From positions 264,259 through 328,258 of the forward strand of contig JAIVFJ010000060.1 in NCBI GenBank assembly GCA_025765615.1: a stretch of 64,000 nt of DNA, given 5' to 3'. Positions 4,901-63,878 of this stretch are shown piece by piece. Position 1 is the stretch's first letter; each line of letters starts with the position of its first letter. The DNA is from Zopfochytrium polystomum (lineage: Eukaryota > Chytridiomycota > Chytridiomycetes > Chytridiales > Chytridiaceae). Made by a program: the position numbers and the translations under genes. The notes beneath the pieces are model-generated. The model was not told the origin of the DNA, did not search any database, and saw nothing but the letters and a program-made list of their open reading frames with translations.

Positions 4901-7371
4901 AGCGCATCGGCTCCCTCGTCGACGAGCGACGGCTCCAGCCCGTGCGCCGCGAGAAAGTGCTTGGCAAAGAAAATCTGGTCGCGATGGTTGTCTTCGTCGC
5001 TCGGCTCGATCGACTTTGTCGGCAGCATCTCCAGCGCCTCCTTGATGTCCGCCTCGGGGCGGCCCGTCACCAAAAGCTTGACCTGAGCGGGCAGCGTCTT
5101 GCTGAGCTCGGCAAACACCTGCAGGATCTCGCGGCGCTGGTTCTGCCGTCCGCACTCGTCCAGTGCGTCCACGACCAGTACCACCGACTGCCGAAGCTTC
5201 CCAGAGCTCGAGAGCTTTTGCAGCGGGACTTGGACCAGCGCCTCAAACATTTCCTGGATGGGCCGGCCGAGGATTTCGGGAAAGGTTGCCTTGATAGAGA
5301 GGAGGAGGTTGCCGTAGTGAACGCTGAACTGCGCCAATCCGAACGCCAGAGTCAAAATCAAGTTGCGCGCGCTGCTGCGGCGCTCGTCGTCGTGCTTGCA
5401 GAAAAACTGTCCGCCCAGAAGACTCTGCGCTTGAAGCTCTCCTGCGACGATCGCGGCCATGACGGATTTGCCGACGCCAGCCACTCCTCGGAGCCACATG
5501 ATTCGCTGAGTGGGTGACCCGTCATCGTCATCGTCGCCGGCGGACAGGAATCCTAGAACTTGGTCTAAAAGCCACTTTCTTGTTCCCGGCAAAAAGTCCT
5601 TTGTCAAACGATCGCGTTCCTTGTCCATCTCTGCAGACAGTGGCTTGAGCCAGCCCTCCAGTTCGTCGATGCTCTGCCGGGAGAGGTAGATTTCGGCGGC
5701 GGGTGCAATCGTTTGCTGCTCCATGACCCGTTTACTTTGAACTTCCCGCGCTTTCGTCACTATTCTGATGTTGTAATCAGCAAAACGATGTAGACGCCTC
5801 GGAGTCAGCCCAGAAGCTTCCTTACTTGTCCACATCGTTTTGGCGGTCCACTTTGGGACCCTGTAGCTTCAGGATTTCGGCAACGGTCCTGCGCACGGTC
5901 TGGCGCCTCGGACTGCGGTGGTGACAGTGGAGCTGGTCCGGGAACTCCAGCGGGTCGAATGTGCTAAACTCGAAGCTGCCCGAACGGAGTTTCCCGTCAA
6001 ACTTGACGCTGCTCCGTTGAGACAGCAGTACTGGAAGAATGTCGCATCCTTTCTCTTCTTTCATTTGCAGCGCGAGCTCCCACTGTAGCGAAAATCGAAC
6101 GCGTTTTATTTTGGTTTTTTATTTTTTTTATTTTGGAGCAACTTGTTATGCACTTTAAGGGCCACTGGAACTGTCGACGCGTTTCACTCACTTCTAGCAG
6201 CACATTGTCGGGGACCGTGTCCGCATATTTCATCTTTTCCATTCCCTTGTCCGAGCACAGCAAAATGAAGATTCCAGAGTGAAACAGTCCGGACATGAAG
6301 TTCAGCTCCCACTGCTCGCCGGCGGATAGACACTGCACGTCGAGAAACGGGTGCAGTCCGTCGTACTTGGACTCTGGCGGGAAGAGGCCGCCGTTCTTGA
6401 AGGCGCGCTCGGAAGCGATCGCGTCTTTCATTTGCCAAAAGAGCAGCTCTGCGACGTGGCTTTCGTAAGCTTGACGGTAACTGGAAATTTTTTGGGGCAC
6501 AACCCTTTAATACGGAGAGCGAAAGAGAGAGAGAGGGGGGTGGCATCTCCCGCGTTGCTTGTTCGACTTGCGAACGTTTCACCGACCTGATGAAAAATGG
6601 ATGCCGCTCCACGTCGGCTCGGCATCTCCAGTCCGCAAGGACCAAATCCTTCCAGTGCTCTGTGGCCGAGTTTGCACCGGTCATGGGTGAATCCAGAAGA
6701 GAAACAGGCTTTCCCCGCCCCCCTCCCCTTGCTCCTCTTACCGTTCGTCGGTACTTCCTGATCATGAAGTGCCGCATCCTCGTTCAACGGTTGAGCTCCT
6801 GTATCCGCGTGGAAGGGCCGCTGATAGTGCGAACGTCAAAACAAGAGTAACACCACAAAGCTCGCGCCCGGAGGACGTACGCTGTCGTTGTCATCGCCTG
6901 CACCGGCGCCGTACGCATCGCCTTTGGCGTTCGAGGTCTCGTCGAGCGTCACCTGTCGTTCGTTTTCAAGAAGGCGGTCGGTTCAATGAGCGGAACGCAG
7001 GGAAACAGTAAAACCCGCGATTCGCCCCCTTCGTCCCGTCGGGGACGCGCGCGGGCGCTTTCTTTCTTTCTCACCTCCCACTTGTACGCCTCGGCAAACA
7101 CCTCCTGGAGGTCGTCGTCGGCGCTGAGCACGTTGACCTCGTCGGTGGCCGGGTCCGTGAACTCGAGCTCGATCGTCGGCTGCTGATGCTGCTGCGCGCC
7201 TCCGGCGATCTTCCAGCCCAGCGCGACCTGCCGCAGCACGGCGTCGTAGCCGGCCGCTGGCGCCACGCGGATCTTTTTGAACTTGCCTCGGTACTTGAAG
7301 CGCACGGCGACAGTCGTCGTTGTGCTTGTGCTCGTGCCGGCGGCGGCGTCTGGCGGCGCCGTGGCCTCCAT
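1921..7371 (-). CDS. NLR-like receptor: PB1-TIR-NACHT-WD40 protein
   Basis: Nine exons, all phase-consistent: 7075-7371, 6881-6952, 6742-6820, 6587-6659, 6192-6480, 5826-6082, 5764-3323, 3234-2861 and 2732-1921. They give 1564 residues. Residues ~21-98 form a PB1-like domain with a basic first strand (RFKYRGKFKKIRV) and an acidic OPCA-type stretch (ADDDLQEV). A TIR domain spans ~175-350; its probable catalytic glutamate lies in DNVLLEWELAL, a motif split by intron 5. The NACHT NTPase follows, with Walker A GVAGVGKS (~449-456) and Walker B VVLVVDALDE. A helical linker then leads to about ten WD40 repeats (~1005-1500). Fungal NLRs of this kind act as intracellular sensors: WD40 repeats recognise, NACHT oligomerises and the N-terminal domain signals. 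A TIR effector would be expected to cleave NAD or nucleotides, which is inference. An alternative in-frame start lies 36 bases upstream at 7407. Confidence 0.85.
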
Positions 7372-28359: not shown

Positions 28360-31300
28360 TCACTGGCAAGTCCGCGCCCACTGGTCGTCGCCGTCCGGAC
28401 CAGAGTACGACACGCACTTATTCTTCTTTCCGCAGCACGCCATGCCTTCGATGCAGGGGACCTGAATGACAAGGCTACCGTACTGGCAAACAACAAACGT
28501 GAACGGATCCCTGCACGTGCCAGACGACCCTTCCGCGTTGGCGGAAGCGCTGCACAGGCTCGGGCAATCTCCATAAGCCGCGCACTGCTTGGTCGAATCG
28601 CAGCAGAACATTCCGTCCGCAGAACAGTCCCGGGAAGCAGCCACCTCGCCGCCGACGCATTGCAGCACCGTGGTCTGGTCCTGGCTGCAGAGAGACTCGT
28701 TGCTCGGGACACCGGCGCACTGGTTCGGGTTGCTCGACGACGCCTTTTTCGTTGCAGCACCCAGAGCGGGGCAGTTGTACATAAAGTCACACGTGTTTGT
28801 GGTCGGGCAGCAAACGGTGCCAGCGGCGCACTTCATGTTCGGGTACGTGGCACCATCCTTGGTACACAACGTGAACGTGGACGAGGAAGTGCAGTACATT
28901 GAAGCGTTTCCGGCCTTGCACTGGCCAGACGGGTAAGTTGTGGCACCCGGCGCCGTGGCAGAGTAGCTGGGGCAGTTCGCTGCCACGTCGCAGAGACCAG
29001 TCGCTGGACAGCAAACACTGCCAGTGCCGCAAGAGATGCTCTGCTGGTTGGCAACATACGCATTGCTGACGCAATACTTGTACGTAGTCGGACCAGTGCA
29101 CGACGGCTGATAGTCAGCAACACCAACACAATTGTTGTACGTTGACGGAGAGGCGGACGGGGCCGTAGCGTTTTGGGTCGAAGTTGCCGAAGGTGGAACG
29201 TACACTGGAGTTGACACGGGTGCGGGAGGGGTTGATGACGGAGTCGATCCATACGTTGGTGTGGCGGATGACGCAGCCATCGCCGAAGAACTCGCGGCAC
29301 TGGCAGTCCCATAGGAGGGCGTTGTGGAAGGCGTAGATGCCGGGGACGGAGTACCGTACGAAGTAGGTGGGGCAGAGTACGGGGTCGGCGTCGCAGACGG
29401 AGTCGTAACAGGAGACGGAGACGGAGTGCCGTAGGATGGCGTGGAAGAAGCTGTGGACGGAGCGGCCGCAGTTCCGTAGACAGGGGTGGAATAAATTGAG
29501 TAAGTGGGCGCATCTGTGCTGTACGGCGTCGAAGGCGGCGTCGAAACTGGAGCCGCACTCGAGGATGCCCCGACGCTGTACACAGGGGGTGGAGACTGGT
29601 ATGATGGCGTTGGAGACGCAGAGGGGGCGGCGTACGAAGTGTACGACGGGACCTGAGGGGCAGCGGAGCAGATCGGATCAGACGCATAACGACAAGCGTT
29701 TCCGCAGCAAACAGTGCCAGGCTGGCAACTCAAAGGAGCGGTGAAAACGGCTATTACAGAAAAAAAATTTGCGGAATGAGCGTTAGCTATCGAGCCGATG
29801 CCAGGTCGCCTCGTAACACCAACCATTGTTCATGCACGAAACAAACTGCTGGCTGTTGATACAGGCAATGGCAGTGTCTGCAACTCCAGCGCAAACGTTG
29901 CCAGTGTACGCTGGTGCCGGCGCGGCTGACGTAGTACCCGGCGCGCCATAAGTAGTCTTGGTTGGTGCCACTGTCGAGTACACGGCAGAGTAGACTGACG
30001 TGACAGTGTAACCAGGAACAATTGTTGGTGGTGGGACCGGGTTCGACGACGGAACATACGCCTTTGCCCCAGCGCATACCGGATCCGACGCGTAGGTGCA
30101 CGCATTGCCGCAGCACACGGTTCCCTGAGGGCAGTTCAGCGGTGCCGTGTATACGCCTGAGAATCCAAAAGTGTGTCAGAAAACAACTGTCAAGAAAGGA
30201 ATCCTGTTGAGATAAAGACTCACTGTTGTGCAGGCAAGTCACAAACTGCGAAGCAGACGTGCAGGCAATTCCAGTGTCAGGAACGGCAGCGCAAACATTC
30301 GAGTACGCCGGGGCCTTTGGTGAAACACAAGCGTTGCCGCTGCAGACAGTACCAAGAGGGCACGGCTGAGTGCCATAGACCGGCGAGCCATTCTTGCAAA
30401 TAGCAATAGACGCAGGGTTAACGCAAGCAGTTCCTCCATCAGGGATCCCAGTGCAAATGCTGACGGGAGTCGACGGCGGCGTGTACGACGGAGGAGGCGG
30501 AATGTAAGGCGGCGGGAGAACGCCAGTGCAGGCCGCCGGTTGCAGACACTTGTTCGAATCGGCGCAGCAGACCGTTCCGGCGGGGCAGGACTGCGGCGCG
30601 TACGAGGCAAAGACACCGTTCAGACACAAGTTGAACTGAGTGTTGCTGACGCAGACAAGCTGGTTGTTCGGTTTGTTCGAGCAGACATGGGGCTTGGTCG
30701 AAGGGCACTCGCCGGGCTTAGCACAAACGTTCGGGCTGCTTCCCGAGCAGCAAACCGTGCCTGGTGCACAGTACTGGTCAAGTGCTGAAATGAGCAGTTG
30801 GTTCAAACAGAAGTTGAAAGTGTTGGCAGAGCGGCAGACGATCTGCATGTCCGGGACACCCTGGCACGGACTGACGGCAGGAGGGACGTAGGTTCCGGGA
30901 ACGTAGTCGGGCTGGCAGTATTTCGGTGGAGTGATCGGTTGTGGCGGAGGCGACACATATGTGTTGGGCGGAGGGGTGTAGAGCAGGCCACCATTAGCAC
31001 AGAGTGGGTCGTAGCTGTAGACACAGGCGTTCCCGCAGCACACGGTGCCAGCTGGGCAAGGCATCGGAGGCGTAATGGCATCTGAAATACAGAGGCAAAG
31101 ATTGGTCAAACACGCAAAAAAATGAAGCGAGGCGAGAGTGTGTCACTTACATCCGTTCAGACAGGTGGAGTATGTCGAGGCACTAACACAAGCAATGCTC
31201 GAATCAGCCTTGTTTGTGCAAATGTTGGTCCCGCACTTTGCGTCACTCGGGAAGACGCAGCCATCTCCGCAACACTTGGTTCCAGCAGGGCAAGATTGAG

Positions 31301-34300
31301 CTGCGGTTGGAAGGCCGCCCAAGCAAATGCTAAATTGGGACGGGTTGACGCAAGCAACCTTTGAGTCCGCGACGCCTGCGCAAACGTTGGACGCGGTGGT
31401 AGAAAACGTTGTCGAAACATCGGTCGGGAGCTCGAGAATGTACGAGTAGGTCTTGTACGTCAACGAAGCCTCACACTTGTTGGTCTGGGCACTGCAAACG
31501 TATCCGGAAGCGCAAGTAGTAAGACCGGGAAGGAAGTCGCCGTTGGCGCAGGTCTTGTAAGCCGTGCTTCCGATACAGAGAGTCGTCCCGTCGGCTAGTC
31601 CCTTGCAGAGCGGATCGTAAATCTGTTTGCAATTGTACTCGTAGTCGCATGTGTTGCTGTCAGCGCAGCAGACAGTGCCCTCGGGGCAGTTGAAATCCGG
31701 AGACGTCAGGAACACTGGAAAGCACGACGGTTTTATTAGTGCAAGTCGATGCACAAAAAGTAAAAAAGGGAAACCTTACTCTGGTTCAAGCAGTAGTTGA
31801 AAGATGTCTTGCTGCGGCAACGGATATGATTGTCCGCGCACTGCGCACATGTGCCATAAGTCTTGGGGACAACCACGGGAGGTGTCGGAGTAACGACGGG
31901 AGGGGTAATTGTGGGAGGTTTGTAACTGGCCGGACGAGCACACATGGGATGAGAGGGTGCGACGCATGCGTTTCCACAACAGTACGTGCCGGTGGGACAC
32001 GACACCGGCGGAGTGTACGACACTGAGGTGATGGGAAAAAGTGTGAGAGATCGAGTCAAGCAAGGTAGGTGGAGGCTTACATCCGCTCTTGCACATGGTG
32101 TACTGAGTGTCGCTGGTGCAGTAAATGGTTTGATCCTTGCAACCTGCGCAAGGCTGGCACAGCGCGCTCTGCGGATCAACGCAGCTGTTTCCGCAGCAGA
32201 CCTGTCCAGCCGGGCACGACTTGAGTCCAACGGTTGGCAGGTTGCCCTTGCAAATAGCGTAGAAGGTCGGGTTTACGCAAGCCATTTTTCCATCAGCGAC
32301 CCCTTCACAGTAGTCGGTCGGAACGTTGGCAATGGGCAACAGTTGAACGCCTTTCGGGTCGACATAGCCATTGGGCAGCTGTGTCACGCACTGTGCCTGG
32401 GGAAGACACTTGTTCGAGTCCGAGCAGCAAACGGTCCCAAACGCGCAAGATTGAGGGATCGGGGTTGTAAATTCTGCAAGTGAACACCTTTAGTATCCAA
32501 TCGGTATCAATATTGACACAACTCACGTCCTTTCCAGCACAGATTGAATTGCGTCGCCGACACGCAAAGCTGCGCATTGTCGGGAAGTCCAGTGCACTTG
32601 TCGGGCAGAGCCGGGGTGTTGGGGTTTACTGGGCATTCGCCGACTCTCAAGCATCGTTGCAGTGCCTGGCAGCAGTACGTACCAGTCGGACAATATTGGT
32701 CAGCAGTGAGTGGAAGAATCTCTGTTCACAAAAGGATTAGCATGACAGTCACGAATTAAAAGCGAAATCATACTTTGATTCAAGCAAAAGTTAAACGTCG
32801 TCGACGACGTGCAAACAATGTTGTTGTCTGCAGCACCGACACAGGAACCGACATTGGTGGGAACGACTACGGGCGGCGGGTTGTACACTGGCGGCGGAAG
32901 CGCCTGAGTTGGGGCGCACACAGGGCCAGGAGTTGTCGCGCACATCGGGTCAGAGCTGAAGACGCACGCGTTACCGCAGCAAACAGTGCCTGGTGCGCAA
33001 GGCATCGACGGCGTTATCGGCGAAGAGTTCTGGCAGAGCACATATTTCGCCGTGTCGGAACAAGCCATGCCGCCATCGGGGATGCTCAGGCAAGGGTTTT
33101 GGGGAACGCCACCACATTTCGGGTCGTCAGGGTACACGCAAGCGTTTCCGCAGCAAACAGTTCCCGCGGCGCAATTCTGATTACCAGTCGACGGAACTAC
33201 AAAAAGGACTCTCAAGAGACGGCGGATGAACGCGGGAAAAAGGCAACCTACCTTGATTGAGGCACAGGGAGAAGGACTTGGTGTTGACGCAGGCAACGTG
33301 GTTGTCGGGTAGCCCGGCGCAAATGTTTGACGACGTTGTGTACGTTGGGACATCAACCGGGGGTGCGACCGGCAACACCGACTTGCAGTTGGACAAGTAG
33401 TCGCATCGGTTCGAATCGGCGCAGCAGACGGTACCTTTCGCGCATGTCTGCGGCGCCGACGAGACAAAGGCACCTTTGCTGCAGTAGCGGAATTGGTACA
33501 GCGAAATGCAGGCGATGCCACCGTCCGAGATCGACGAGCAGGATGGAGCAGGAAGAGTTGGAATCGTCGAGGGTGGGAGGACGGAGGCGCAGTTGCCCGG
33601 ATAGTCGCACAGGTTGGATTGAGCGCAGCACACGGTACCGTACGGGCAACTTTGATCCGCAGCGTTCAAGACCGACCCAGATTTGCAGTAGTTGAAAGTA
33701 GTCTTTGAGCGGCAAATAATCGATCCGTCCTTCGCGCCGCTGCAAGACGGCGCGTAGACCGGCGGCGGAATGTACGCGGGGGTAGGCGGCGGAGTGTAAG
33801 TTGGCGCACTTCCGGGACATCCAGCCACATCGCAACGGTTGGTTCCCTCGCAGCAAACCAACCCCGCGGGGCACGTAATGTCATTCGACGAGTAAATTTC
33901 TATAGAGTTGTTCATTAGGCCCATTTGGTAAATATGCATGTGCGGATGGAAACTCACGTTGATTGACGCAGTACTTGAAAGTATTCGATCCGGTACAAAT
34001 AATCTGGTTGTCCTTCTTACCACTGCAAGTATGGGGAGGTCCATACGGGGGCGGCGCATACGTAACTGAAGTTGGGCAGTCGGCCGAGTCACAGCGGCCA
34101 GTGTTGGAACAGCAAGTTTGGCCAGACGGGCAAGACTGATCAACGGCCGAAGCGTAGGCTATGGCGAGGATTAGTCAAAATTCGGCAACAAGAAAATGGA
34201 AAACATTTGCAAACTCACTCTGGTTCCAGCAAATGTTGAAAGTCGTGGGTCCCGTGCAAACAACACCGTTATTCGAAATCCCTGAACACAAGGACCCCGA

Positions 34301-37300
34301 CGAGGGAGTGTACACTGGGGGCGACGGCGCGTATTGGGGTGGAGCAGATGAACAGGAAGCTTCACAGCGCTGCGTCGCCTCGCAACAAGTGAGACCGGCC
34401 GGACACGACTGGTCGTAGGCAGTCACTGGGGCTACGTGGAGAAAAATGATCAGATTGCAGCGCCAACAAGAGTGTGTCACGCTTACTCACTTTGACCGTA
34501 GCAGAAGTTAAAAGTAGTGGGTGACGTGCACCGGAGGCGATTGTCGGGTTGGCCAGAGCAATCGCAGGTGGTAATCGAGCTTGGACTCTTCACCGAAAGG
34601 CCCACAACGATTGGAGCGTACTTGAAAGTGCTCCCGCCCGAATACGTTGGGGCGACGACCGAACCGTAGGATACAGGGCAACCTGGAACGTCGCAGCGAT
34701 TGGATGCGGCGCAGCACACGAGGCCAGGGGGGCAGGTTTGCGACGACGACGAAACTGGCACTGGACAGAACATCAAGGAGTTAGAATGACAGAACAAAGC
34801 TTGCTTTGGACGAATAAGGTTCAACCCACGTCCGTTCTGGCACATGTTGAAAGTGTTCGCGCTAGTGCAATAAATATTTCCGTCCTTGACGTTTTGGCAA
34901 ACCGAAGGGTCATACGGCACAGGAGCCGGTGCAACGTATCCGGCACCTGGGCATCCGGCAACGTCGCACTTGTTCGTGTTCGCGCAGCAGTACAGACCGG
35001 GTTGACAGTTGATGTCGACGCTGCTCGCGGGAAGACCATTCTGGCAGATACGGAAAGAGGTCGCCGACGCGCATGCAATCTTGCCATCCGGGACCCCTTT
35101 GCAGTTGATCACAGGTGGAACGTAGGCCGGCGTGCTTGGCGTTGGCGGGACGTACGGAGTAGTAGCGCATCCAGGGTAGTCACACTTTCCTTTGCCCGAA
35201 CAGCACACGAGACCAGAAGGGCAAGTTTGCGAAGGAGTGGCGAGGCCCCCCTGGCAAAGGGTAAACGTGTTTCCACCAGTGCAGACGAAAGTCGAATCGG
35301 CCAGTCCGTCGCAGTTGATGGCGGGAGGTGTCGGGGGAACGTAAGAGGGACACGACGATTCACAAGACTGAGTCTTTTCGCAGCAAGTCAACCCTGCGGG
35401 ACAGTACTGGTCCCATACGCCACTCTTGACTGAAAGAGAATGTGTCAAACTAGAGTAACAAGCTGCCCGGTTCGTGTTCTCACCTCCGCCTGCGCAAATG
35501 TTGAACGTGTTGGGAGCCGTGCACGTCACGTATCCGTCAGCTTTGCCGACGCAGCTTCCACCAGAGTTTTTAACCTGTGGAGTCTTTGTGTAGGACCCAC
35601 TGCTGCCGTCTTGTGGAATCGGGCTGGGAGTGCCAACACAACCGGCATAGTCACAACGGTTGAGGTTGTCGCAGCAGACGAGCTTGTTCGGGCACTTCTG
35701 GTCTTGTCCCGAAAACACTGGAAGCGAGGCAGGGTCAGGAGTCGTCGAGTGAACGCACAAAAAATGGGCGGCGTACCTCCGTCGTGGCAAATGTTGAAAG
35801 TGGTGGTTGATCGGCAAATGATCTGGTTGTCCTTCTTGCCCGTGCATCCAGCAGGGTTCGGGTTGGGATTGTACGGGGGAGGGGGCGGCGGGCTGACGGG
35901 AGGTACAACCGAAGGTGTTCCGGCACAGCCTGCAACGTCGCAACGGTTGAGGTTTCCACAGCAAACAGTGGTCGCAGGGCAGGATTGATCAACCGCAGAG
36001 GCTTCGACTATATAAAAATGCAAAGAATCGTTAGTGATGTCATCCACCAAACCGCAAGTGGATCTCCAGAATCACCTCCGTTGAAGCAAATGTTAAATGT
36101 TGTCAGACTCTTGCACACAATCTGATTATCCTTCAATCCAGCGCAAGTTTTCGGGGGTGGTGTGTAGCTGCAACCCGGGTAGCCGCAAGCCTGCTGGGCC
36201 TGGCAACACTCGAGACCTGGTGGGCAGGATTGATCCACTGCCTTGACGAGGGCTGGTACAAACAGGGCAGCATGAGCGAGGCTTAACGTGAACTCGTGCA
36301 ACGTCGGCTTTTACCTCCTGACAAACAGTAATTAAGAGTGGTCTTGCTTTGGCAGACAACGTAGCCGTCGGGTTTCCCAGTGCAAGATGAGCCGTACGTT
36401 GTTGGGGGTGTCGAGGGAGCTGGAGTTGTGGGTGGTGGAACGTACGGCGCCGCACAGGTGGCATCGCAGCGCTGGGCACCTTCGCAGCAAATAAGGCCCG
36501 CTTGGCAAGTCTGGTCAGCGTACGGCTTCGCTCCGGATTTGCAAATGTTGAACGTCGTCGCAGACGTGCAAACAACGTAATTGTCGGGCTTGTTTGTGCA
36601 GCTTCCAGTGGGAACCGCTGGGATCCCGGGGGTGTAGACGGGCGGACTCGTCGCCGTTGACGCGCAACCTGCAACATCGCATCGGTTGAGACCTTGGCAG
36701 CAAACAAGACCGGCTTGACACGATTGAGGGGCAGAGTTGACTTCTGCGCCGTTCTGACAAATGTTGAACGTGGTTGCGGACTTGCAAACAATGTTGTTGT
36801 CGGGGACTCCTGCGCACGAAGCAGAGGGTGGAGCCACCGCGTACTGTGGACACCCAGCCACGTCGCAACGGCCGAGATTCGGGCAGCACACAAGACCGGC
36901 CGGGCAGTACTGGTCGGCAGCCGACGCCAAGCCTGAAGGTGGGGGAAAGAAGCAAGTAAGCTCAGATGCACAAAAAGGCGAGCAAATCTCGACGACGACG
37001 ACGACGACTACCCACCTCCATTCAGGCAGTAGTTTAGCGTGTTTCCCGACGTGCAGACAAGCGTTCCGTCCGCCTTGCCCGAGCACTGAGCATAGGTTCC
37101 AGAGTACGTTGGGGCCGGGGGAGGAGGAGGCACGTAGGTTGTCGTCGTGGTGGCGGGCGGTGTGTACTGGGTGGTGCATTCCCACGAGTACCGGCACGCC
37201 GAGACGCCGTTTGCGGCAGCGCAACAGACAGTACCTTGGGGGCAGTTGAGTGCTTGAACGATGGGGGCTGCGTGTGGTGTGGGGGGGGGCCAGCGAGTGT

Positions 37301-37770
37301 ACGAGGGTATGTATTCCTTGTCAGGCCAGTCTGCGTTCGGACTTTTTTTTTTCCTTACTCACACAAGTTGGAACACGTGACAAACGACGTCTGGCTGGTG
37401 CAGACGACCGTGCCGTCCGTCGCGGCGCCGCCGCACATGGACCCGCACGACGAGCTGCTGGCCGGCACGAGCTGGTTGTTGCAGCACTTTTGGTTGCTGG
37501 GCACGCTGACCGCAGCGCCAGACGCAACTGGCATAAAGGAAAGCAATCGTCGAGAGCAGCAATGAGTAAGGCGGGGCGTGTTGCTGTTTTACACAGAAAG
37601 TGAAACAACTCACCGTTATACCCGCAAACGTAGTACGAAGACAGGCTCGCGCAGACAATCGAACCCGCAGTCTGCCCATAACACGCGTCGGCAGACGCCA
37701 CAGAGGCCGACGACGCCAACAGCGCCGCCAAACAAGCCGCGACGGCCCTGGCCTGCCACCGGGTTGCCAT
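28360..37770 (-). CDS. Giant secreted chitin-binding protein with 36 CBM19-like modules
   Basis: Twenty exons from ATG 37770 to the stop at 28360: 37770-37614, 37527-37363, 37267-37016, 36932-36315, 36252-36076, 36007-35777, 35717-35484, 35429-34830, 34760-34491, 34431-34219, 34158-33958, 33899-33252, 33196-32774, 32721-32527, 32473-32081, 32022-31780, 31714-31151, 31081-30224, 30156-29824 and 29750-28360. All introns are phase 1; the product is 2721 residues. A signal peptide (cleavage near ASA/DA) precedes about 36 tandem Cys-rich modules of pattern C..x.DG.I.C.S..TFN.C.NG, a loop, then C.xGTVCC.....C, joined by Pro/Thr-rich linkers. This resembles CBM19 of fungal chitinases. A long Ser/Thr/Pro stretch near 29130-29690 separates the last modules. 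No catalytic domain, GPI signal or membrane segment is visible. It probably coats or cross-links chitin at the cell wall or on substrates. The last modules are the most diverged. Confidence 0.85.
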
Positions 37771-38590
37771 CTTTGGGATGGCCGTTTCGGAGGGGGGGCT
37801 TGCTAGCAAAGTCTGTTTGGGGAAAGCAGGAAGGGGGAAAGGAGGAGGACGAGTCCGGTGGAGGAAGAAGGCGCGTGGAACGCGTTCGTTGTGTTAGTTT
37901 GCCCTCTAAATTGTTTTTCCGCGGAGCGGGACGCTTCGTTTGGGTCAGGTACATGGGGAAACAAGTTCTTTCAGACCCGTGGGGTGTGTGATGTGCTCGG
38001 AGAGGGATAGAGTGGAAGCCGTAGAGGTCGCCAAAGAGGACCACTCGAGGGAGGATGAGGGGGGCAGAGGCGTTTTGGGAGTCGGCGGGTTGGATGGGGA
38101 TGGGGGGGGACCAGGAACGCGGGGGCCAACGAGTCCAAAAGAAAAACGCGTCGCGCGGGCGTGCGCACCCCCGACTTACCCCTCTTTCCTTCTCCGCTTC
38201 TCCTCCTGTGTTTTTTCGCTCCTTGTTACTTGAGCGAGCAGGGCTGTGAGTATCTCCAGTTTACGGTTTGGAAAGGAAGCGCGGCTGGACCCGAGTGAAA
38301 AACGCGGCCGATGGGCGGGGCGGGGAGACGGCGGCGTGGTCGGGAGTCTTCGGGTTGCAGCAGGAGACGGGGATGCCCAGCAGCAGCGAGTGAACCGAGG
38401 GGGGAAGGGTTGGGTTGAGAGTTGTATGTGTGTGTGTGTGCTGGAAAGGCGGGCGGGGATTTAAATAGGCGGAGGAGGTGGGAGCAGGAGCAGGAAGAGA
38501 GAGACAGAGAGCAGGAGCGGAGAGAGAAAAGAGAGAGAGAGGGAGTAACAGAGAGACAGGGGAGGGAAGTAGAGGGAGGGTGTGCGGGAC

Positions 38591-45524: not shown

Positions 45525-47366
45525 ATGTCCTCGTCGTCCTCCTCATCCGCTCCCTCCGTCATCGTGCTCCTCGGCGGCGACGGCGTCGGCCCCGAAGTCG
45601 TCGCTGAGGCCAAAAAGGTGCTCGTTGCCGTCGCAGAGGCTTCGCCGCGCGTCGCAAAAGACTCGCTGCGCTTCGAGGACCACCTCATGGGCGGATGCGC
45701 CATCGACGCTACAGGTAGGGTAAATCACACGCACACACGCACACACGCTCGCACACACGCACGCACGCACGCACGCGCGCACCCTTGCAATTCTGGGCCC
45801 TTGCCGTCCCTCCCTCTTGTTGTTGTTTCCGTGGTCTCTCTCCCTGGGCGTCTCGCCCTTTTTTCCTTCCTTTTCAATTCCTTCCTTTATCTCTTTATGT
45901 TCTTGCCCTCGTGCGTGCATCTGTTTCATCGCGCTGCTTTCATCGCCATCACCATCATCATCATCATCATCATCGTCATCGTCTTCATCTTCATCTACCC
46001 ATTCCCGCCCCGCGGCTTGCCGCCTGCGCCGATTCACGTGCAGCCGTGCAGCCCACTACCAGGTGTTGGTGATGACCACTCGCTGCCCGCTGGATCGACT
46101 TGTCGGTTTGCCGCGGAAACCCGACGGACGAACGGGCCGCCACATTTTGCAAAACTGACGGAAAACGCTCTCAAGGAGTCTGCCACATTCACACACATGC
46201 TTGAACCAAACACACTGCCCTCACAAACACCCTTCTTTCCCTTTTTCTTTTGACCGCCCTGTCTAACTAACGCCTTTCTCTCCCCTCCCGCCCTTCTGTT
46301 CAACGCACGTTGCACAGGCGTTCCACTGCCGGCCTCGACCCTCTCCGCATGCAAGTCGGCGGCGGCCATCCTCCTCGGCGCCGTGGGCGGCCCCCAGTGG
46401 CCGCGCAAGATTGCGAACGCGGACGGCACGACGACACTCACGCCGCGGCCCGAGCAGGGCCTGCTGGAGCTTCGCAAGGCGCTCGACCTGTTCGCCAACC
46501 TTCGCCCGTGCATTTTCCCTTCCCGCTCTTTGCTCGACCTCTCGCCGCTCAAGCGCGAAAAGGTGGACGGCGCGGCTTTCACGATCGTGCGCGAGCTGAC
46601 AGGCGGCATCTACTTTGGCGAGCGGGTCGAGGCGGACCACCCTGACGCGCTGCGGGCGGACCCCAGCAACCCGACCGCCTGGGACAAGATGTCGTACTCG
46701 GTCGAGGAGGTGCGCCGCATAGCGCGCGTGGCGGGCGAGATGGCGGTACTGACGACGCCGCCCGCAACGGTCACGTCGATCGACAAGGCGAACGTGCTGG
46801 CGACGTCGCGGCTGTGGCGCCGCGTCGTCACCGAGACGCTGGCGGCCGAGTTCCAGGGCGTCACGGTGCAGCACCAGCTCGTCGACTCTGCGGCCATGCT
46901 GATGATCAAGGACCCGCGCGCGCTCAACGGCGTGGTCGTGACGGAGAACATGTTTGGCGACATTCTGTCCGACGAGGCCAGCGTGATTCCGGGGTCCCTC
47001 GGCCTCCTGCCGTCGGCCAGCCTGAACGGCTGGCCGCGTCCGCGCGGCGCTGCGGCTGCGGCGTCGGCGTCGTCAAAGCCGACCGTCGGCTTGTACGAGC
47101 CGATCCACGGGTCAGCGCCGGACATTGCCGGGCAGGGGATTGCGAACCCGATCGGCACTATCCTGTCGGCGGCGCTGCTGCTGCGGTACTCGCTGGGGCT
47201 TGAGCAGGACGCGCGGGCGGTGGAGGACGCGGTGCGCAAGGTGCTGGACGACGCCAAGGACGGTGGGCGCGGGCTGCGCACGCGCGACCTCGGCGGCCTC
47301 GCGACGACGCGCGAGGTCGGCGACGCGGTCGTGGAGGAGCTCCGCAAGATTCTTGTAGGCGCGTGA
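45525..47366 (+). CDS. LEU2: 3-isopropylmalate dehydrogenase
   Basis: Two exons, 45525-45714 and 46318-47366, are joined in phase 1 across a 603-bp intron rich in AC repeats. They give 412 residues. The enzyme oxidatively decarboxylates 3-isopropylmalate with NAD in leucine biosynthesis. The sequence has the family features in order: [14 protein letters not shown] at the N-terminus, [30 protein letters not shown], the D-rich metal site in [18 protein letters not shown], and [21 protein letters not shown] near the C-terminus. Length and motifs are normal, with a small Ala/Ser-rich insertion before PTVGLYEP. The Ser-rich start ([11 protein letters not shown]) is not a clear mitochondrial signal, so the cytosol is likely. 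An AATAAA near 47681 could serve polyadenylation. Leucine prototrophy of the organism follows from an intact enzyme. Confidence 0.95.
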
Positions 47367-50266: not shown

Positions 50267-53098
50267 ATGGAAAGTGAACAAAACTTGGTTGAGTTTCAAA
50301 AGCGTGGCTTGCCCCATGCCCACATTGCTTCCTGGCTGGACCCCAGTGACACACCACAGAGCCCAGATGACTATGATAGATTTGTGAGTGCAGAGCTGCC
50401 TGACCTTCAGCAGGATCCAGAGCTGTACAGGATTGTCACAGAGACCATGATTCACTCTTGCTCAGACTGTTGCAAACCTGCTGGCGCCAAAAAGTGCACC
50501 ATGGGGTATCCCAAGCCGTGGGTTGATCAGATTCAGGTGTCACCTGAAGGTGGTGTCAAGTACCAGCGCAGGAACAATGGACAGTATGGCACCCTCCAAG
50601 TTGGCTTTGAAGTGGACAGCCAGTGGGTGGTTGCATTCAACCGGTATCTGTCCAGAAAGTACCAGGTGCACATCAATGTGGAGATTTGCGCCACCATGAG
50701 GGCCATCAAATACCTCATGAAATACTTGCACAAGGGCCATGACAGAGCAAAGGTTGCAGTTGGCTCTGGAGAAGTCACTGTCTGTGTGGATGAGATCAAT
50801 GAGTTCCTCAATGCCTGCTACGTGTCTGCTCAGGAGGCTTGCTGGAGGGTCTTCCAGTTCCACATGCAAGGCCGGATACCGTCAGTCACAAGATTAGCTG
50901 TGCATCTTCCTGACCAGCAGTCAGTTTACTTTGACGAGGATGCTGATCTTGGGGAAGTCGCTGCCCTTCAGAGGGACTCCAAGCTTCTTGCTTTCTTCAG
51001 CATCAATGAGTGGGACCTTGATGCAAGGCAGTGTTTGTACTTTGAAATTCCTGAGCACTACACGTGGAGCCAGAGGCATGCCAGGTGGGCAAAGAGTAGG
51101 AGGCAGCAGGCCGCAGCAACCATTAGAAGGATGTATGCAGCAAGCCCTTGGCACTCTGAGAGATATTTTCTCTGTGCTCTCCTGGCCAATGTCAGAGGCC
51201 CTACCTCATTTGAGCACCTCAGGACTGTGGACGGAACCACCTGTGGAACATTTCAGGAAGCCTGTGTGTGACGTGGACTAACTGCAGACAATCGTGAGGC
51301 AGTTCAGTGCTTGGAGCAGGGTGTGCACGTGATGACAAGCTCAATGGAGTTCATCAGGCTGTTTGCATTGCTCCTTGCTTTCAATGTTCCAGCTGATCCA
51401 AGGGCTCTTCACAATAATTTTAAGCTTGAGATGGTTGCCGACCAGCTTCGTGCGGCTCAGCTGGAGCATGGGAATCTGGATCTTGCCTACAGACCACATG
51501 CACTGCACAGCACTGAGGCTGCTGGATGTGTCCTTGCAGAGTTTGTCAACCTCACCGTGCAACTTTCCCACCCTGCCACAGCTGGAAGAGTTCCAGCGTG
51601 AGACTTCAACTGATTTTTCAAAGGCTAAACTTGGACTACAATCAGCAGCAACTAGAGGTCATTGTGGCAAATGCTGAAAGGAGCTTCCTCCAGGAGCAGG
51701 CCTTTGCTTACAGGGCTATGGTGGATGCTGTTGAGCAATGTGGACAGCCTGGAGTCGTGCCTCCTCCGGGAGGCCGAGTCTTCTACCTACAGGGAGTGGG
51801 AGGATGTGGCACCTTTGTCTACAATGCCATCTTGGCAAAAGTCCGCAGCAGCCAAGGTCGCTTTGGACAGGGCTGCGTTGCCCATGCTGTGGCTTCTTCA
51901 GGAATAGCAGGGCTTCTGCTTGCCAGTGGCTCAACTGCCCACTCTCTATTTGCCATCCCCATTCAGCTTGATGCTGATTCTCAGTCTGGAATCAAAATGT
52001 CCACTGACCGTGCGCTGGAGCTCTACTTGGCTGATCTCATTGCATTGGATGAGATATCCATGCTTAACTCCTTGGCACTGGATGTCATTGACAGAGTCTT
52101 GCGTGATGTTGTCCGGCCCTTGGATCCTCAGATGGCTGAAGTGGTGCTTCTTGGAGGTGACTTCCAGCATACTGCACCTGTTGTGCCCAAGGCCACAAAG
52201 ACCATGATCTTGCAGGCTTCCTGCAAGTTCTCAAAACTTTGGAGGCATGTCAGGACACTTGAGCTGAGAACCAACATGAGGCTTGTCCAGGGAACTGCAA
52301 ATCAGAAAGCAGTCAACTTTGCCTGATGGTTGGCACAGGCAGCCTGCTGCAGTTTGACACTCAAGATGGGGCACCCAATCATGTCATGGTCCCAGACTAC
52401 ATCAGTACCCTCACCTTTCCTGCAAACGATGGCAGCTTCGTGTGAGACAACAGTTGGAGGCAGTCTATGATGACTTTGGTGCAGCAGCTCAGCATTCAGG
52501 AGAGGAATTTGCATCCTACTTGGCAGACACGTGTATTTTGGCTGCAAAGAGTGATGTGGTTCATCAATTCAATGAGTATGCAGTGCAGCAGCTTCCAGGC
52601 GATGCCCAAGAGCTGCTTTCAGCAGACACCCCAGTTGGAGACGATGGAGGCGACAGATTATCATCAGCCCCGAGTTCCTAAACACCCTCAGCCCTCCCAA
52701 CCTGCCTCCCCACAGGCTAACTGTCAAAGGGGGAATGCCTCGATCCTGCTTTGCAACCTGACAGATGGACTCTGCAATGGGACAGGCCTCAGCCTTCAGG
52801 AAGTCTGCCCCAACGTGCTGCTCTGTGAAGTTGTTGTGGGCAGCAGAAAAGGAGAAAAAGTCCTTCTTCCCAGAATTTCTCTGCAGCCCAGTGATTCAGG
52901 ATTTGCCTTTGAGTTCACCAGAAAGCAATTTCCAGTTTGACCTGTGTTTGCAATGTCGATCAACAAGTCCCAAGGACAGACTTTGAAAAAAGCTGGCCTG
53001 GATATGTGGCAGGATGTGTTTGCACATGGACAGTCCTACGTTGCTTTTTCCAGAGTGACATCCCCAGAAGAACTTATAAATAACTGCAAAAAACAATG
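50267..53098 (+). mobile_element. Decayed Helitron (Rep-helicase remnant)
   Basis: The open frame 50267-51271 carries the Helitron Rep motif 2 (FQKRGLPHAHI, the HUH-type metal site) and motif 3 with the catalytic tyrosines (YLMKYLHKGHD). The helicase part follows in other frames: a Pif1-like Walker A region (GVGGCGTFVYNA), Walker B (IALDEISML), the GGDFQH..PVVP motif, LCNGTGL, and a terminal [11 protein letters not shown] plus [13 protein letters not shown] ending in a stop at 53096-53098. Walker A lacks the invariant lysine, and at least three frame changes occur (near 51.3, 51.6 and 52.3 kb and again before 52.95 kb). The 5' end is truncated before Rep motif 1. The helicase could not work as read. 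Element termini (5' TC, 3' hairpin with CTRR) were not identified. Confidence 0.8.
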
Positions 53099-60158: not shown

Positions 60159-63100
60159 ATGGTCAAAGCTGTTAATGAAGACGGAGGCACGATCGCCCTC
60201 GCCGCCCCAGTCTCGAATCAAGAGGAACGCACATTCGATGCATTTCTTTCGTACTCGTATGTGCCGATTTGAAGATTTTGACCGTTCCATATTTATTTTT
60301 CGGGAATTCGTTAGGGGGGCAAATCAAGAGGTCGTCCGACAGATTTACAATGACCTCACAGTCAAGCATGGCTTTCATATTTGGTTCGATCTAAACAATA
60401 TTAGTGGTAGCCTGGGCCGTGCAATGGCCGAAGGAGTCAACAATAGTCGTGTGTTCATCCCAGTATTGTCCAGGGATTTTCAGGTAAAGTGTGCATTAAA
60501 ACAACTGATTGCATCTCATTTCAACTGACAAGAGGACTGTAGTCCTCAGATAATTGTTTGTTGGAGTTGAGATATGCAAAAGACAGAAAAAAACCCATGA
60601 CTCCAGTCCGACTGCTAGACCCCAAGGAAGACCCCACCGGAGAGGCTTTTGCAACAACTGCAGGGTAAGCCCTGATGGCAGTTTGAAATGCTCTTAAGTC
60701 CCCACTTTAAATTTTTCAAAGGCTTTTTAAAGTTGATTTGTTAGGAATTGTCTATGATTCTGTGGAGTGGAATGATCGCATTTCTCTGCTTGCAACGAAA
60801 ATCAAATTTCACATGAGTCCGCCACCGCCCATGGCTGCCCGGGAATTTGATGCATTCCTGTCCTACCAGTATGAACTCCACAGCTCACTGAATGCTTGTT
60901 ACCTGTTCATCTTACACTTAGTTTAGATTAAAGAGCGAGGAAGTTGCAACGAAAATTTATGAAGACCTCACGGCCAAGCATGGCCTCAATGTTTGGTTTT
61001 TCTTGAATAATATTGGTGGATCTGTGAACAACTTAGCAGCTATGACACAAGGAGTTCATTCCAGCAAGGTGTTCATACCTGTCTTGAACTTGGCCTATCA
61101 GGTAAAGGACGCCAGAAGCTGGAGATAATCTGAAGTTTCGACGCTTAAAAAGGAATCCAGGCCTCAGAGAATTGCATGTTTGAGATGAGATATGCGTATG
61201 AATTGAGAAAACCCATGACTCCAGTGCGCCTCATGCAGCAGGGTGAACAGGCTGAAGGAGAGGCATTTGCCATGACTGCAGGGTAAGCCCCTTCAATTTT
61301 CTTGACTGAAACTCCCAGTTCAACATTTTCAAGGTTGCTGTATGCGGATTTGGCAGGAAAAGACTTTGGTTTAACTGAGTGGAACAATCAAATCAATATC
61401 CTTGTCAAGGAAATCAGGCGTGTCAGCAGTGTAGTTGCGAAAACGACACAGTATGCAGTGATGTCGCCTCTGCACCTTGCTTCTCAGGAGGGAAATGCTG
61501 CCCAGGTCATGTTGCTGCTGCAACACGGTGTCAATGTAAACACTGTGAACCAAGAAAAGTCAACTCCACTGCACTTTGCGTCATCGAAGGGATATTTGGA
61601 CATTGTCAAGTTGCTTGTGCTTAAAGGCGCCAATGTGAATGCCGAGAATCTGAAGCAGGAGACACCGCTGTATCTGGCAGCAGGTAATGGACACTTGGAA
61701 GTGGTCAAGTTTCTTAGGCGCCAAGGATCTGATTTGAATGCGTGGAATTCTGACAAGCCCAAACCCCTCTATGTCGCTACCGAAAATGGGCATATGCAAG
61801 TCGCTCAGTGGTTGCTGGAGCAGCGCGCAGACGTTAATTTCGTGAATGTGCAAGAAATTGCTGCACCATCGTCCTTGGTTGAGCTGCAGACGGATGTTTT
61901 GAATATCAACATTGGAACACAAAAAATTCCATCAGCTGAAAAACGCGCTATAATTCCTCGTGCTGAAGTTCACGCAGTTGTGGGTCGGCGCAGCAGCAGC
62001 GGCGGTCTCGACAGCAACCAAATTATCAAAGAGCTGGAGTCGATTCCGATGGGCATGACTCTCGATCAGACCATTGCTCATCCACTTCAGACGCCACTGG
62101 CCGGGATTGATTCTGACGGTGACAGTCTCGGCTATGGCTCTCACGAATCTGCGCCACACAGTGTCACCAACTCTCCTCTCGACTACACTGGAGAATCAGC
62201 CCCCTCGTCCTCTGCGCCCAACTCTTCCAATCATCGCGTCGCCCGAGAAGTCGCAGAAATCCGCTTCGATGTGAGTTGAACTTTTCACAATCTCCTCCAT
62301 TTTTAAAACCTCTTCGGTTATGTGTTGCGAAGGCAATGATCAGCTACGCATGGAAGGACGAGAGTAAAGTCCGGCCGATTGCAGAATCTCTGCAAAAAAT
62401 GGATTTTCGAATTTGGCTGGATGTAAGAAATATGGGCGAAGACACGATCGACTCTATGATAGAAGGGATCACTCAGTCGGCTGCCGTGATTGCATTTATT
62501 TCTGATGACTATGTTGAGTCTCACAACTGCAAGAAGGAAATTAAATATGCGAATGAAATGCGCAAGCCTATTATCCCGGTTCGTTTAAATGATTCGCCCG
62601 CTGTATCAATAAGTGCAGCAGCATTCATTACAGCAGGACAGCTCTGTAAGTTCACCAGAAACTACGGTTACTGTTGCTTACGTCTCTTTGCTTTCGTTAA
62701 ACAATTTCAACGTCGTAAAATCAAAAGATGTTGATCTTAAAAATGGGGTTACCCCTAAATCGCACTTGGAGATTGCAGACAGGCTCAACAGGTTGTCTCT
62801 TTCTGGACTGGACGCTATCACAATTTCGAGCGATGACGTGGTGGTGTTTGACGACGACGATGATAGTTTCCTTGGCGATGGATCTGTGGGCACGGTCAGC
62901 AAAGGCCTCTATCTCAACACAACAACTGTAGCTGTAAAAACTATGAAGCTGCGAAAATTGAGCACTAGCGCCAAAGACCAGCTCATCAACGAGGCCAAAG
63001 TTCTTTCGAGATCCCGCCATCCCTTCGTAATTGGGTTCCAAGGATTGATTAAAAACAAAGGCGTCTATTCGCTGGTCCTCGAGGTGATAACTTTTTTTTT

Positions 63101-63878
63101 CATCAAAATTTACAACTCACGCCCCTATTCCTGTTTTTCATGTAAAGTACGCCACACTTGGGTCGTTGAGTGAATATTATCGAGACCCAGCTCACAAGAA
63201 CACACCGCTTCACGAACGAGTCCCGCTCCTGTTTCAAATTGCTTCAGGCATGACCTATCTTCACGATACTTTGGGCATCGTCCACAACGATCTCAAGAGC
63301 CCGAACGTACTCCTCACCCGGCTGGAACCGAGAGGACTTGTGGCAAAGATCACCGACTTTGGCCTCAGCAAGATAAAGGATGAGACCCGAAGCGCTACGA
63401 CCAACGCAAAGGTCGATGGATCGCTCCTCTGGATGGCCCCCGAGCTCCGGAGGATCCGCCCAAAGGTTTGGGTCCCGTCGTTGTATTTGTCCCAATGAGG
63501 CGTTGGCCCCTTTTTAACGCTTGGTTCGTTTTCATCTCGACCCCCACCTCCCCGTAGGTAACGCAGCGCAACGACGTCTTCTCCTTTGCAGTGCTGATGA
63601 CCGAAGTCGTTAGCTGGATTGGAGTGTACGGACGGCCGTGGGGCACGCACATGATCGCCGTGATCGACGCGTTGCGTGACGAGCACCAGCGCCAGGAGCT
63701 CCTGGACGAGCTCCAGACGGAAGTGTTCCGTTCTTCTGAAACCACCGTCGGAGCCGCTCTGTTTGGGCTCTTTCGGCGCTGCTGGGATTTCGACTGGGCC
63801 TCACGCCCCCGGTTTCGCGCGGTGTGCTTGGAGTTGACGGACTTGGAGCGCCGCTCGCTTATCTCCAGGAATGCCTGA
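60159..63878 (+). CDS. TIR-TIR-ankyrin-TIR-protein kinase receptor-like protein
   Basis: Eleven phase-consistent exons: 60159-60256, 60315-60483, 60543-60664, 60722-60868, 60927-61101, 61161-61282, 61334-62270, 62333-62645, 62728-63083, 63148-63465 and 63558-63878. They give 1025 residues. TIR1 (~23-130) opens with FDAFLSYS and has NCLLELRYA. TIR2 (~168-278) opens with FDAFLSYQ and has NCMFEMRYA. About four ankyrin repeats (~320-450) follow (SPLHLASQEGN, TPLHFASSKGY, TPLYLAAGNGH, KPLYVATENGH). TIR3 (~591-690) has ISYAWKDES, DFRIWLDVR and NCKKEIKYA, so a possible catalytic Glu is kept in all three. A TKL-like kinase completes the protein: LGDGSVGTV, VAVKTMK, VHNDLKSPNVLL (HND instead of HRD), ITDFGLSK and MAPEL. 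The kinase looks catalytically competent but non-RD. Sensing through ankyrin/TIR with kinase output is inferred. Introns of TIR1 and TIR2 coincide. Confidence 0.9.

What the first reader, a model, noticed from the sequence alone, without database searches (positions are those of the whole stretch)
60159..63878. Three-TIR, ankyrin and protein-kinase fusion
One protein carries TIR-TIR-ANK-TIR-kinase. TIR plus kinase combinations are rare in fungi and look more like plant or protist receptor systems. All three TIRs keep a glutamate at the corresponding place, and the kinase keeps Lys, catalytic Asp, Asn and DFG but has HND where HRD is usual, as in non-RD innate-immunity kinases. It could be an all-in-one cytosolic sensor whose TIR enzymatic activity and kinase signalling are coupled.
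Basis: partly seen in the sequence, partly recalled or inferred. Interest (0 to 1): 0.85.

Follow-up and report, generated by a model that had tools for sequence, protein, structure and literature searches.

The report
Chytrid TIR-TIR-ankyrin-TIR-kinase chimera
A chytrid fungus carries a gene that appears to join parts of two of its own immune-receptor-like gene families, one of the TIR-NACHT kind and one of the TIR-kinase kind, into a single predicted signalling protein.

Summary
Eleven exons (60159-63878, +) splice cleanly into 1025 aa in TIR-TIR-ankyrin-TIR-kinase order.

The genome changes the reading. TIR3 and kinase belong to an expanded family: 15 further TIR-then-kinase arrangements in 14 fetched stretches, 11 of 15 with LRR matches downstream. 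TIR1 and TIR2 belong to another expanded family, TIR-NACHT(-ankyrin) NLR-like genes. A tree separates the two origins (98/97), and exon lengths agree. The gene is thus a chimera: a TIR-TIR-ANK front fused before the N-terminal motif of a TIR-kinase gene. The junction lies inside one 937-nt exon with no in-frame stop and no in-frame start codon between ankyrins and motif.

Glutamates and kinase catalytic residues are kept, but TIR2 lost an otherwise fixed Asp. HND is general to this kinase clade, TIR-less members included, so it is not a TIR-linked immune mark. Kinase-TIR fusions are published in choanoflagellates; a red-algal one has a different kinase lineage. No transcripts were available, and the contig ends 122 nt after the stop, so a C-terminal LRR cannot be excluded. 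Function is inferred.

The parts
60159..63878 (+). whole gene model, 11 exons (60159-60256, 60315-60483, 60543-60664, 60722-60868, 60927-61101, 61161-61282, 61334-62270, 62333-62645, 62728-63083, 63148-63465, 63558-63878), 1025 aa
   Evidence: splicing and translation; Pfam
60231..60806 (+). TIR1 (exons 1-4; ends estimated from residues 25-158), putative catalytic Glu E97
   Evidence: internal exons 169 and 122 nt as in TIR-NACHT loci
60840..61430 (+). TIR2 (exons 4-7; ends estimated from residues 170-310), Glu E245 kept but F instead of the D found in the other chytrid rows; possibly weakened
   Evidence: internal exons 175 and 122 nt
61464..61850 (+). ankyrin repeats (four Pfam stretches; ends estimated)
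   Evidence: Pfam Ank
61851..62012 (+). linker where the two modules meet; coding frame open, no ATG in frame (one ATG out of frame at 61894, 2-codon ORF)
   Evidence: 0 stops in the coding frame of exon 61334-62270, 12 and 13 in the other two frames
62013..62084 (+). motif SNQIIKELESIPMGMTLDQTIAHP, which lies N-terminal to the TIR in the TIR-kinase family
   Evidence: matches of the window linker or the P0002 N-terminus upstream of the TIR in 12 of 15 TIR-kinase arrangements; upstream of the TIR in P0002-P0004, near the N-terminus in P0002 and P0003
62259..62765 (+). TIR3 (exon 8 plus flanks; ends estimated), Glu E659
   Evidence: model of exon 8 best matches AbTir
62865..63830 (+). protein kinase domain (PF07714 scores above PF00069), HND catalytic loop
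   Evidence: tree
63876..63878 (+). stop codon; the contig ends 122 nt later, so an LRR-bearing 3' extension as in paralogues cannot be checked

Best explanation
It is one real gene, a chimera seen once in this genome. A TIR-TIR-ankyrin front, related to this fungus's TIR-NACHT(-ankyrin) NLR-like family but without a NACHT, stands in frame in front of a member of its TIR-kinase(-LRR) family. Shown by sequence: the parts, the two origins of the TIRs and the open junction. Inferred: the protein is cytosolic; the ankyrins (and possibly an unseen LRR) bind a ligand or partner; clustering brings the TIRs together, TIR1 and TIR3 cleave NAD+ or recruit other TIR proteins, and the kinase is switched on by the same clustering. 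Because its front TIRs match the TIR-NACHT receptors and its third TIR matches the TIR-kinases, the likeliest special role is a bridge that couples NLR-type assemblies to kinase output by TIR-TIR contact.
For: Clean 11-exon frame; domains; exon lengths shared with both parent families; TIR1 and TIR2 with 7 TIR-NACHT rows at 98/97, TIR3 in a 16-row set with the 14 TIR-kinase TIRs and one more at 96/90, all three window TIRs as one clade rejected by the AU test (an earlier tree had already been seen); 15 further TIR-kinase arrangements; NACHT-type domain (NPHP3_N over its cut-off) after the TIR in 8 of 8 sampled TIR1/2-like loci; motif of the TIR-kinase N-terminal region inside the same exon as the ankyrins, with no stop and no in-frame ATG between; nearest solved TIRs by sequence include Cat1 and AbTIR for TIR3 and Cat1, L6, Roq1, RPP1 and AbTIR for TIR1, weak matches; that all of these cleave NAD+ is partly from entry names, partly recalled; Glu present in 14 of 15 TIR-kinase TIR rows and 7 of 7 TIR-NACHT rows; kinase part of paralogue P0002 modelled with 22 of 28 ten-residue blocks at pLDDT 70 or more; no 19-residue window of mean hydropathy 1.6 or more in the window protein, the highest being 1.57 inside the kinase.
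Against: No transcript. No near-identical deposited protein came back in three searches with length limits, so no public model of this fusion was seen. No match of the linker region 61851-62012 itself was identified. No second locus with this order was found: ankyrin matches on the TIR strand in 0 of 15 TIR-kinase arrangements, and only part of the candidates was scored genome-wide (95 of 255). The last intron has a weak donor (GTTTGG) and GC 0.54, the other nine introns 0.31-0.44. An internal start at 61794 inside the last ankyrin cannot be excluded. The TIR3 fold also matches MyD88 and Toll-type TIRs, which do not argue for an enzyme. TIR2 lost an otherwise fixed Asp. Catalysis, ligand and bridging are untested.
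Confidence: 0.75

Rival explanations
1. Two adjacent genes: a TIR-TIR-ankyrin gene followed by an ordinary TIR-kinase gene, merged by the choice of exons.
For: The TIRs of the two halves belong to two separate families, and the motif at 62013 lies upstream of the TIR, close to the start, in deposited paralogues P0002 and P0003.
Against: Exon 61334-62270 is open in the coding frame throughout (0 stops against 12 and 13). In-frame ATGs near the junction lie only inside the last ankyrin (61794) and inside the motif (62049, 62055); the one ATG between ankyrins and motif (61894) is out of frame and stops after 2 codons. The first gene would have no stop without a further intron.
Confidence: 0.13
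2. Non-functional product or assembly chimera, made by recombination between duplicated TIR loci near a contig end in transposon-bearing DNA.
For: The gene ends 122 nt from the contig end; a Helitron-like helicase lies at 50-52 kb; TIR2 is altered; at least one relative (L046) has a degenerate TIR without the Glu.
Against: All 11 exons are intact with kinase and TIR key residues kept, although its kinase is at most 55% identical to the nearest row of the tree, which is hard to keep without selection.
Confidence: 0.1
3. Truncated view of a larger receptor: the true protein continues past 63878 by a splice into an LRR beyond the contig end, giving TIR-TIR-ANK-TIR-kinase-LRR. This is compatible with the best explanation.
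For: 11 of 15 TIR-kinase arrangements have LRR matches within 4.5 kb downstream of the kinase on the same strand; P0002 and P0004 have LRR in the same protein.
Against: The last exon reaches an in-frame stop after a complete kinase domain; 4 of 15 relatives show no LRR, one of them (in L040) cut by the end of the fetched stretch.
Confidence: 0.3

Closest known systems
Choanoflagellate 'Kinase TIRs' and 'Kinase TLRs' (Richter et al. 2018, eLife, PMC6040629; passages read)
   Same: TIR and kinase in one protein, in one class without membrane span, in the other with LRR; the authors suggest that it bypasses recruitment of kinases. They also note ankyrin repeats with TIR in choanoflagellates.
   Different: The order given there is kinase then TIR; here TIR precedes the kinase, with ankyrins and two further TIRs. 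The paper calls both classes unique to choanoflagellates in its data set, which held five fungi.
TIR-kinase(-LRR) family of the same genome (P0001-P0004; arrangements in L032, L033, L035-L046)
   Same: motif upstream of the TIR in 12 of 15, 313-nt TIR exon, kinase with HND
   Different: no TIR-TIR-ANK front; LRR matches after the kinase in 11 of 15
TIR-NACHT NLR-like genes of chytrids (L033, L052-L058; Chytriomyces hyalinus P0123 with TIR at 143-275, NPHP3_N and WD40; TIR in chytrid NLRs is mentioned as reported in PMC9815663, passage read)
   Same: TIR1/TIR2 sequence and exon lengths; ankyrin matches downstream in 5 of 8 sampled loci
   Different: no NACHT in the window gene; a third TIR and a kinase instead
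TIR-kinases of the Gracilariopsis chorda (red alga) type, P0036 and nine listed look-alikes, most without an organism name
   Same: TIR_2 followed by a kinase of the PF07714 type
   Different: separate kinase lineage (AU p 0.004, 5 rows), HRD catalytic loop in P0036, no Glu in the aligned column in 5 of 5 rows
Fungal LRR-kinases: four Batrachochytrium dendrobatidis genes with LRR and kinase are mentioned in PMC2939053 (passage read)
   Same: LRR and kinase in one chytrid protein, as in the paralogues
   Different: no TIR mentioned; not compared here
Plant TIR NADases (L6, RPP1, Roq1)
   Same: TIR domain, with TIR1's Glu aligned to a Glu of L6
   Different: no NB-ARC here; the kinase has no plant affinity

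Membership tests
TIR domain (Pfam TIR_2) | match over the curated cut-off | tested here: met
   194.9 bits against 28, 3 stretches
NAD+-cleaving TIRs | glutamate at the catalytic position (position recalled) | tested here: met
   E659 aligned with a Glu of Cat1 and AbTIR, E97 with a Glu of Cat1 and L6; E245 by multiple alignment only
NAD+-cleaving TIRs | NAD+ hydrolysis | not testable with these tools
   needs an assay; fold search also returns adaptor and receptor TIRs
Active protein kinases | G-loop, VAxK Lys, catalytic Asp, Asn, DFG | tested here: met
   present in the sequence; PF07714 and PF00069 matched
Non-RD innate-immunity kinases of plants | residue before the catalytic Asp is not Arg | tested here: met
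   HND; but general to this chytrid clade
Non-RD innate-immunity kinases of plants | kinase groups with plant receptor kinases | tested here: not met
   window kinase lies in a Z. polystomum set of 9 rows at 100/99, with other chytrids at 100/98; the two plant receptor-type rows are elsewhere
Z. polystomum TIR-kinase family | N-terminal motif, 313-nt TIR exon, kinase | tested here: met
   the place of the kinase next to the other TIR-kinases is weakly supported (85/47)
Z. polystomum TIR-kinase family | LRR after the kinase (11 of 15) | tested here: inconclusive
   stop at 63878, contig ends 122 nt on
NLR / STAND proteins | NACHT or NB-ARC domain | tested here: not met
   no such family up to E 1
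Choanoflagellate Kinase TIRs | kinase and TIR together, no membrane span | tested here: met
   (hydropathy only)
Choanoflagellate Kinase TIRs | common descent | not tested
   no choanoflagellate sequence was put in the trees

The most novel reading that the evidence does not exclude
Fungi independently evolved a class of intracellular TIR-kinase(-LRR) receptors, and in this chytrid the class is wired to the TIR-NACHT NLR repertoire by a hybrid protein that carries the TIR types of both: a one-protein coupling of NLR-type TIR assembly to kinase signalling.
Probability: 0.3. Interest if true: 0.8.

Novelty: new variant of a known kind. Interest (0 to 1): 0.62.

Why it matters
LRR and TIR receptor systems are usually described as features of animals and plants; a 2010 survey with 49 fungal genomes (PMC2939053, passages read) found LRR receptors absent from 45 of them. 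An early-diverging fungus with parallel expansions of TIR-NACHT and TIR-kinase-LRR genes, plus a gene that joins them, offers a natural test of how TIR assemblies get coupled to kinases, and suggests that TIR-kinase proteins arose more than once.

Tried and rejected
Two-gene reading: weighed by the stop and ATG survey of the junction exon and kept as a rival. Common origin with red-algal-type TIR-kinases: rejected on the kinase tree, where this group was named in the script before the tree was seen; the tree holds long branches and a warning about them. The three TIRs as a simple tandem triplication: rejected, but after one search had shown a first tree. HND as a sign of innate-immunity kinases: dropped, since relatives without TIR share it. 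Paralogue counts from six-frame searches are lower bounds (95 of 255 candidates scored), the LRR count uses a 4.5-kb limit and could include a neighbouring gene, and two of the 15 TIR rows are divergent (L045, and L046, which lacks the Glu). From the tree I left out five red-algal-type rows, a duplicate row of L033 and the L046 row; L058 gave a partial TIR and was left out of both TIR trees. The place of the red-algal-type rows is weakly supported and not used. In the AlphaFold model of P0002 the TIR part is below pLDDT 50, so only kinase and LRR are used. A phage-collection search had no match and no bearing.

Full report
Organism. The window is the last 64 kb of contig C60 (328,258 bases) of an 80.16-Mb, 761-contig genome. 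Deposited Zopfochytrium polystomum proteins P0001-P0004 lie on contigs whose lengths equal those of C162, C62, C129 and C241 of this genome. I infer that the genome is that of this chytrid (Fungi, Chytridiomycota).

Gene model. Pfam gives three TIR_2 stretches, ankyrin repeats and one kinase. Relatives support the boundaries: TIR-NACHT loci have an internal TIR exon of 169 nt in 7 of 7 and of 122 nt in 4 of 5 measured (119 in the fifth); window TIR1 has 169 and 122, TIR2 has 175 and 122. The 313-nt TIR3 exon has AG before it in 14 of 14 paralogous exons and GT at the same end position in 11 of 14. The TIR-NACHT exons were found by maximising the match to window TIR2, so they lean towards it, but the GT and AG sites are in the DNA.

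Two parent families. Searching the own genome with TIR3-kinase gave 129 matches, the window's own included; TIR_2 gave 85. Twenty stretches were then fetched. Fourteen of them (L032, L033, L035-L046) hold 15 TIR-then-kinase arrangements, L040 holding two; in L034 the TIR and a kinase lie more than 4 kb apart, and in L047-L051 no kinase match follows. LRR matches follow the kinase in 11 of 15, the N-terminal motif precedes the TIR in 12 of 15, and ankyrin matches on the same strand occur in 0 of 15. TIR1/TIR2-like genes are another family: in 8 of 8 sampled loci (L033, L052-L058) the reading frame after the TIR matches NPHP3_N, a NACHT-type P-loop domain, over its cut-off; PF05729 NACHT itself is matched in 7 of 8, at or over its cut-off in 4. 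Ankyrin matches follow in 5 of 8 by tblastn; several stretches are short or interrupted.

Origin of the parts. In a maximum-likelihood tree of 31 TIRs, TIR1 and TIR2 form one side of a branch with 7 TIR-NACHT rows (98/97), TIR3 lies in a 16-row set with the TIR-kinase TIRs (96/90), and holding the three window TIRs together is rejected. Identities: TIR1-TIR2 53%, TIR1-TIR3 38%, TIR2-TIR3 36%. The kinase lies in a Z. polystomum set of 9 rows (100/99) that includes TIR-less kinases P0005-P0007, and with three kinases from Dinochytrium and Phlyctochytrium at 100/98. Its exact place next to the other TIR-kinases is weak (85/47). Uniting chytrid with red-algal-type TIR-kinases (5 rows, of which only P0036 carries an organism name in the listing) is rejected (AU p 0.0043).

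Junction. Exon 61334-62270 runs from the end of TIR2 through the ankyrins to the edge of TIR3. The coding frame has 0 stops, the other two 12 and 13. In-frame ATGs near the junction lie only inside the last ankyrin or inside the motif. The motif SNQIIKELESIPMGMTLDQTIAHP resembles a stretch upstream of the TIR in P0002-P0004 (ILRRLKTIPRNLTVDEVIAHP in P0002, about 30 residues from its start). The fusion point is therefore just before the N-terminal region of an ordinary TIR-kinase. Exon 7 begins as the TIR-NACHT exon does (LLYADxAGK...) and then passes to ankyrins instead of the NACHT.

Database view. Region 560-1025 had 334 hits, 120 listed, out of 7996 scored candidates (a capped set). Among the 120, TIR_2 and kinase occur together in P0001-P0004 and in ten further proteins including P0036 of the red alga Gracilariopsis chorda; I fetched nine of these ten (all but P0040), which look like one family. 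None of the 120 lists an ankyrin Pfam entry with them. Region 1-320 of the first 590 residues had 1 hit (Rhizophlyctis rosea). Region 15-320 with longer length limits had 5: Z. polystomum P0122 and Chytriomyces hyalinus P0123, both with NPHP3_N, and three weak tapeworm TIR proteins. In P0123 the TIR is at 143-275, before the P-loop domain and WD40; in P0122 it is at about 1095-1236, after it. No near-identical deposited form of the window protein was returned.

Function. TIR3's best solved matches by sequence are Cat1 (E 4.7e-5) and AbTIR; MyD88 and Toll-like receptor TIRs follow at about 0.002-0.008. TIR1's are Cat1 (E 0.0026), L6, Roq1, RPP1 and AbTIR. All are weak. The exon model of TIR3 (mean pLDDT 79) best matches AbTir, E 7.3e-5, with a TIR-STING and MyD88 close behind, so the fold does not decide between enzyme and adaptor. 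The Glu column is E in all three window TIRs, 7 of 7 TIR-NACHT rows and 14 of 15 TIR-kinase rows (A in L046), and A in 5 of 5 red-algal-type rows; window TIR2 alone among chytrid rows lacks the Asp of the W-x-D stretch. HND appears in all 16 catalytic-loop motifs recovered from 15 stretches (one extra pattern match in L036, HPD, is on the other strand; one of the two kinases of L040 gave no motif) and in 7 of 113 returned proteins with the motif, namely P0001-P0007 of this species. No 19-residue window of the window protein reaches a mean hydropathy of 1.6, the highest being 1.57, which fits a cytosolic protein.

Literature. Searches: 'Zopfochytrium' (7 papers), 'TIR domain' with 'chytrid' (14), 'TIR domain' with 'early-diverging fungi' (0), a five-term search (231, 20 listed), a six-term search (30, 15 listed), 'kinase TIRs' (1), three spellings of TIR-kinase (2). 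In those listings and in the passages that I read of six papers, none describes fungal TIR-kinases; subscription papers are largely not held. Choanoflagellate Kinase TIRs are described in PMC6040629 (passages). PMC9815663 states that TIR had been reported in NLRs of Chytridiomycota (passage), whereas a 2014 survey (PMC4986451, passages) found no NLR hits in chytrids. PMC2939053 mentions LRR-kinase genes in Batrachochytrium (passages).

Verdict. A real and unusual gene: a new variant of a known kind (kinase-TIR proteins) in Fungi, with good evidence for chimeric origin and only inference for function.

Noticed in passing
window 2851-5868 (-), with WD40 continuing at 2719-3239 (-): A NACHT-WD40 protein (NPHP3_N, NACHT, WD40), another NLR-like gene in the same 64 kb.
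   Followed up: partly
window 50267-52323 (+): Helitron-like element: rolling-circle initiator and Helitron_like_N matches below their cut-offs, then a PIF1 helicase.
   Followed up: partly
window 28360-37893 (-): Long run of ORFs with cysteine-rich repeats; the two ORFs tested have no Pfam match.
   Followed up: partly
window 46254-47363 (+): Isocitrate/isopropylmalate dehydrogenase-like gene (PF00180, E 4.8e-106).
   Followed up: no
   Followed up: no
L055:1528-2373 and downstream (-): A TIR-NACHT gene whose P-loop domain match stops at profile position 100 of 164, followed by ORFs that read like a retroelement gag region; not tested further.
   Followed up: no
P0122 (Z. polystomum, 1370 aa): Deposited model with the P-loop domain before the TIR (TIR_2 at 1101-1211): either a C-terminal TIR or two neighbouring genes merged.
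   Followed up: no
L042: TIR followed by two kinase domains in one locus, deposited as P0001.
   Followed up: partly
L056:1-483 (+): A TIR-NACHT gene whose TIR exon frame extends about 130 residues upstream of the TIR with no match tested; a possible extra N-terminal domain.
   Followed up: no
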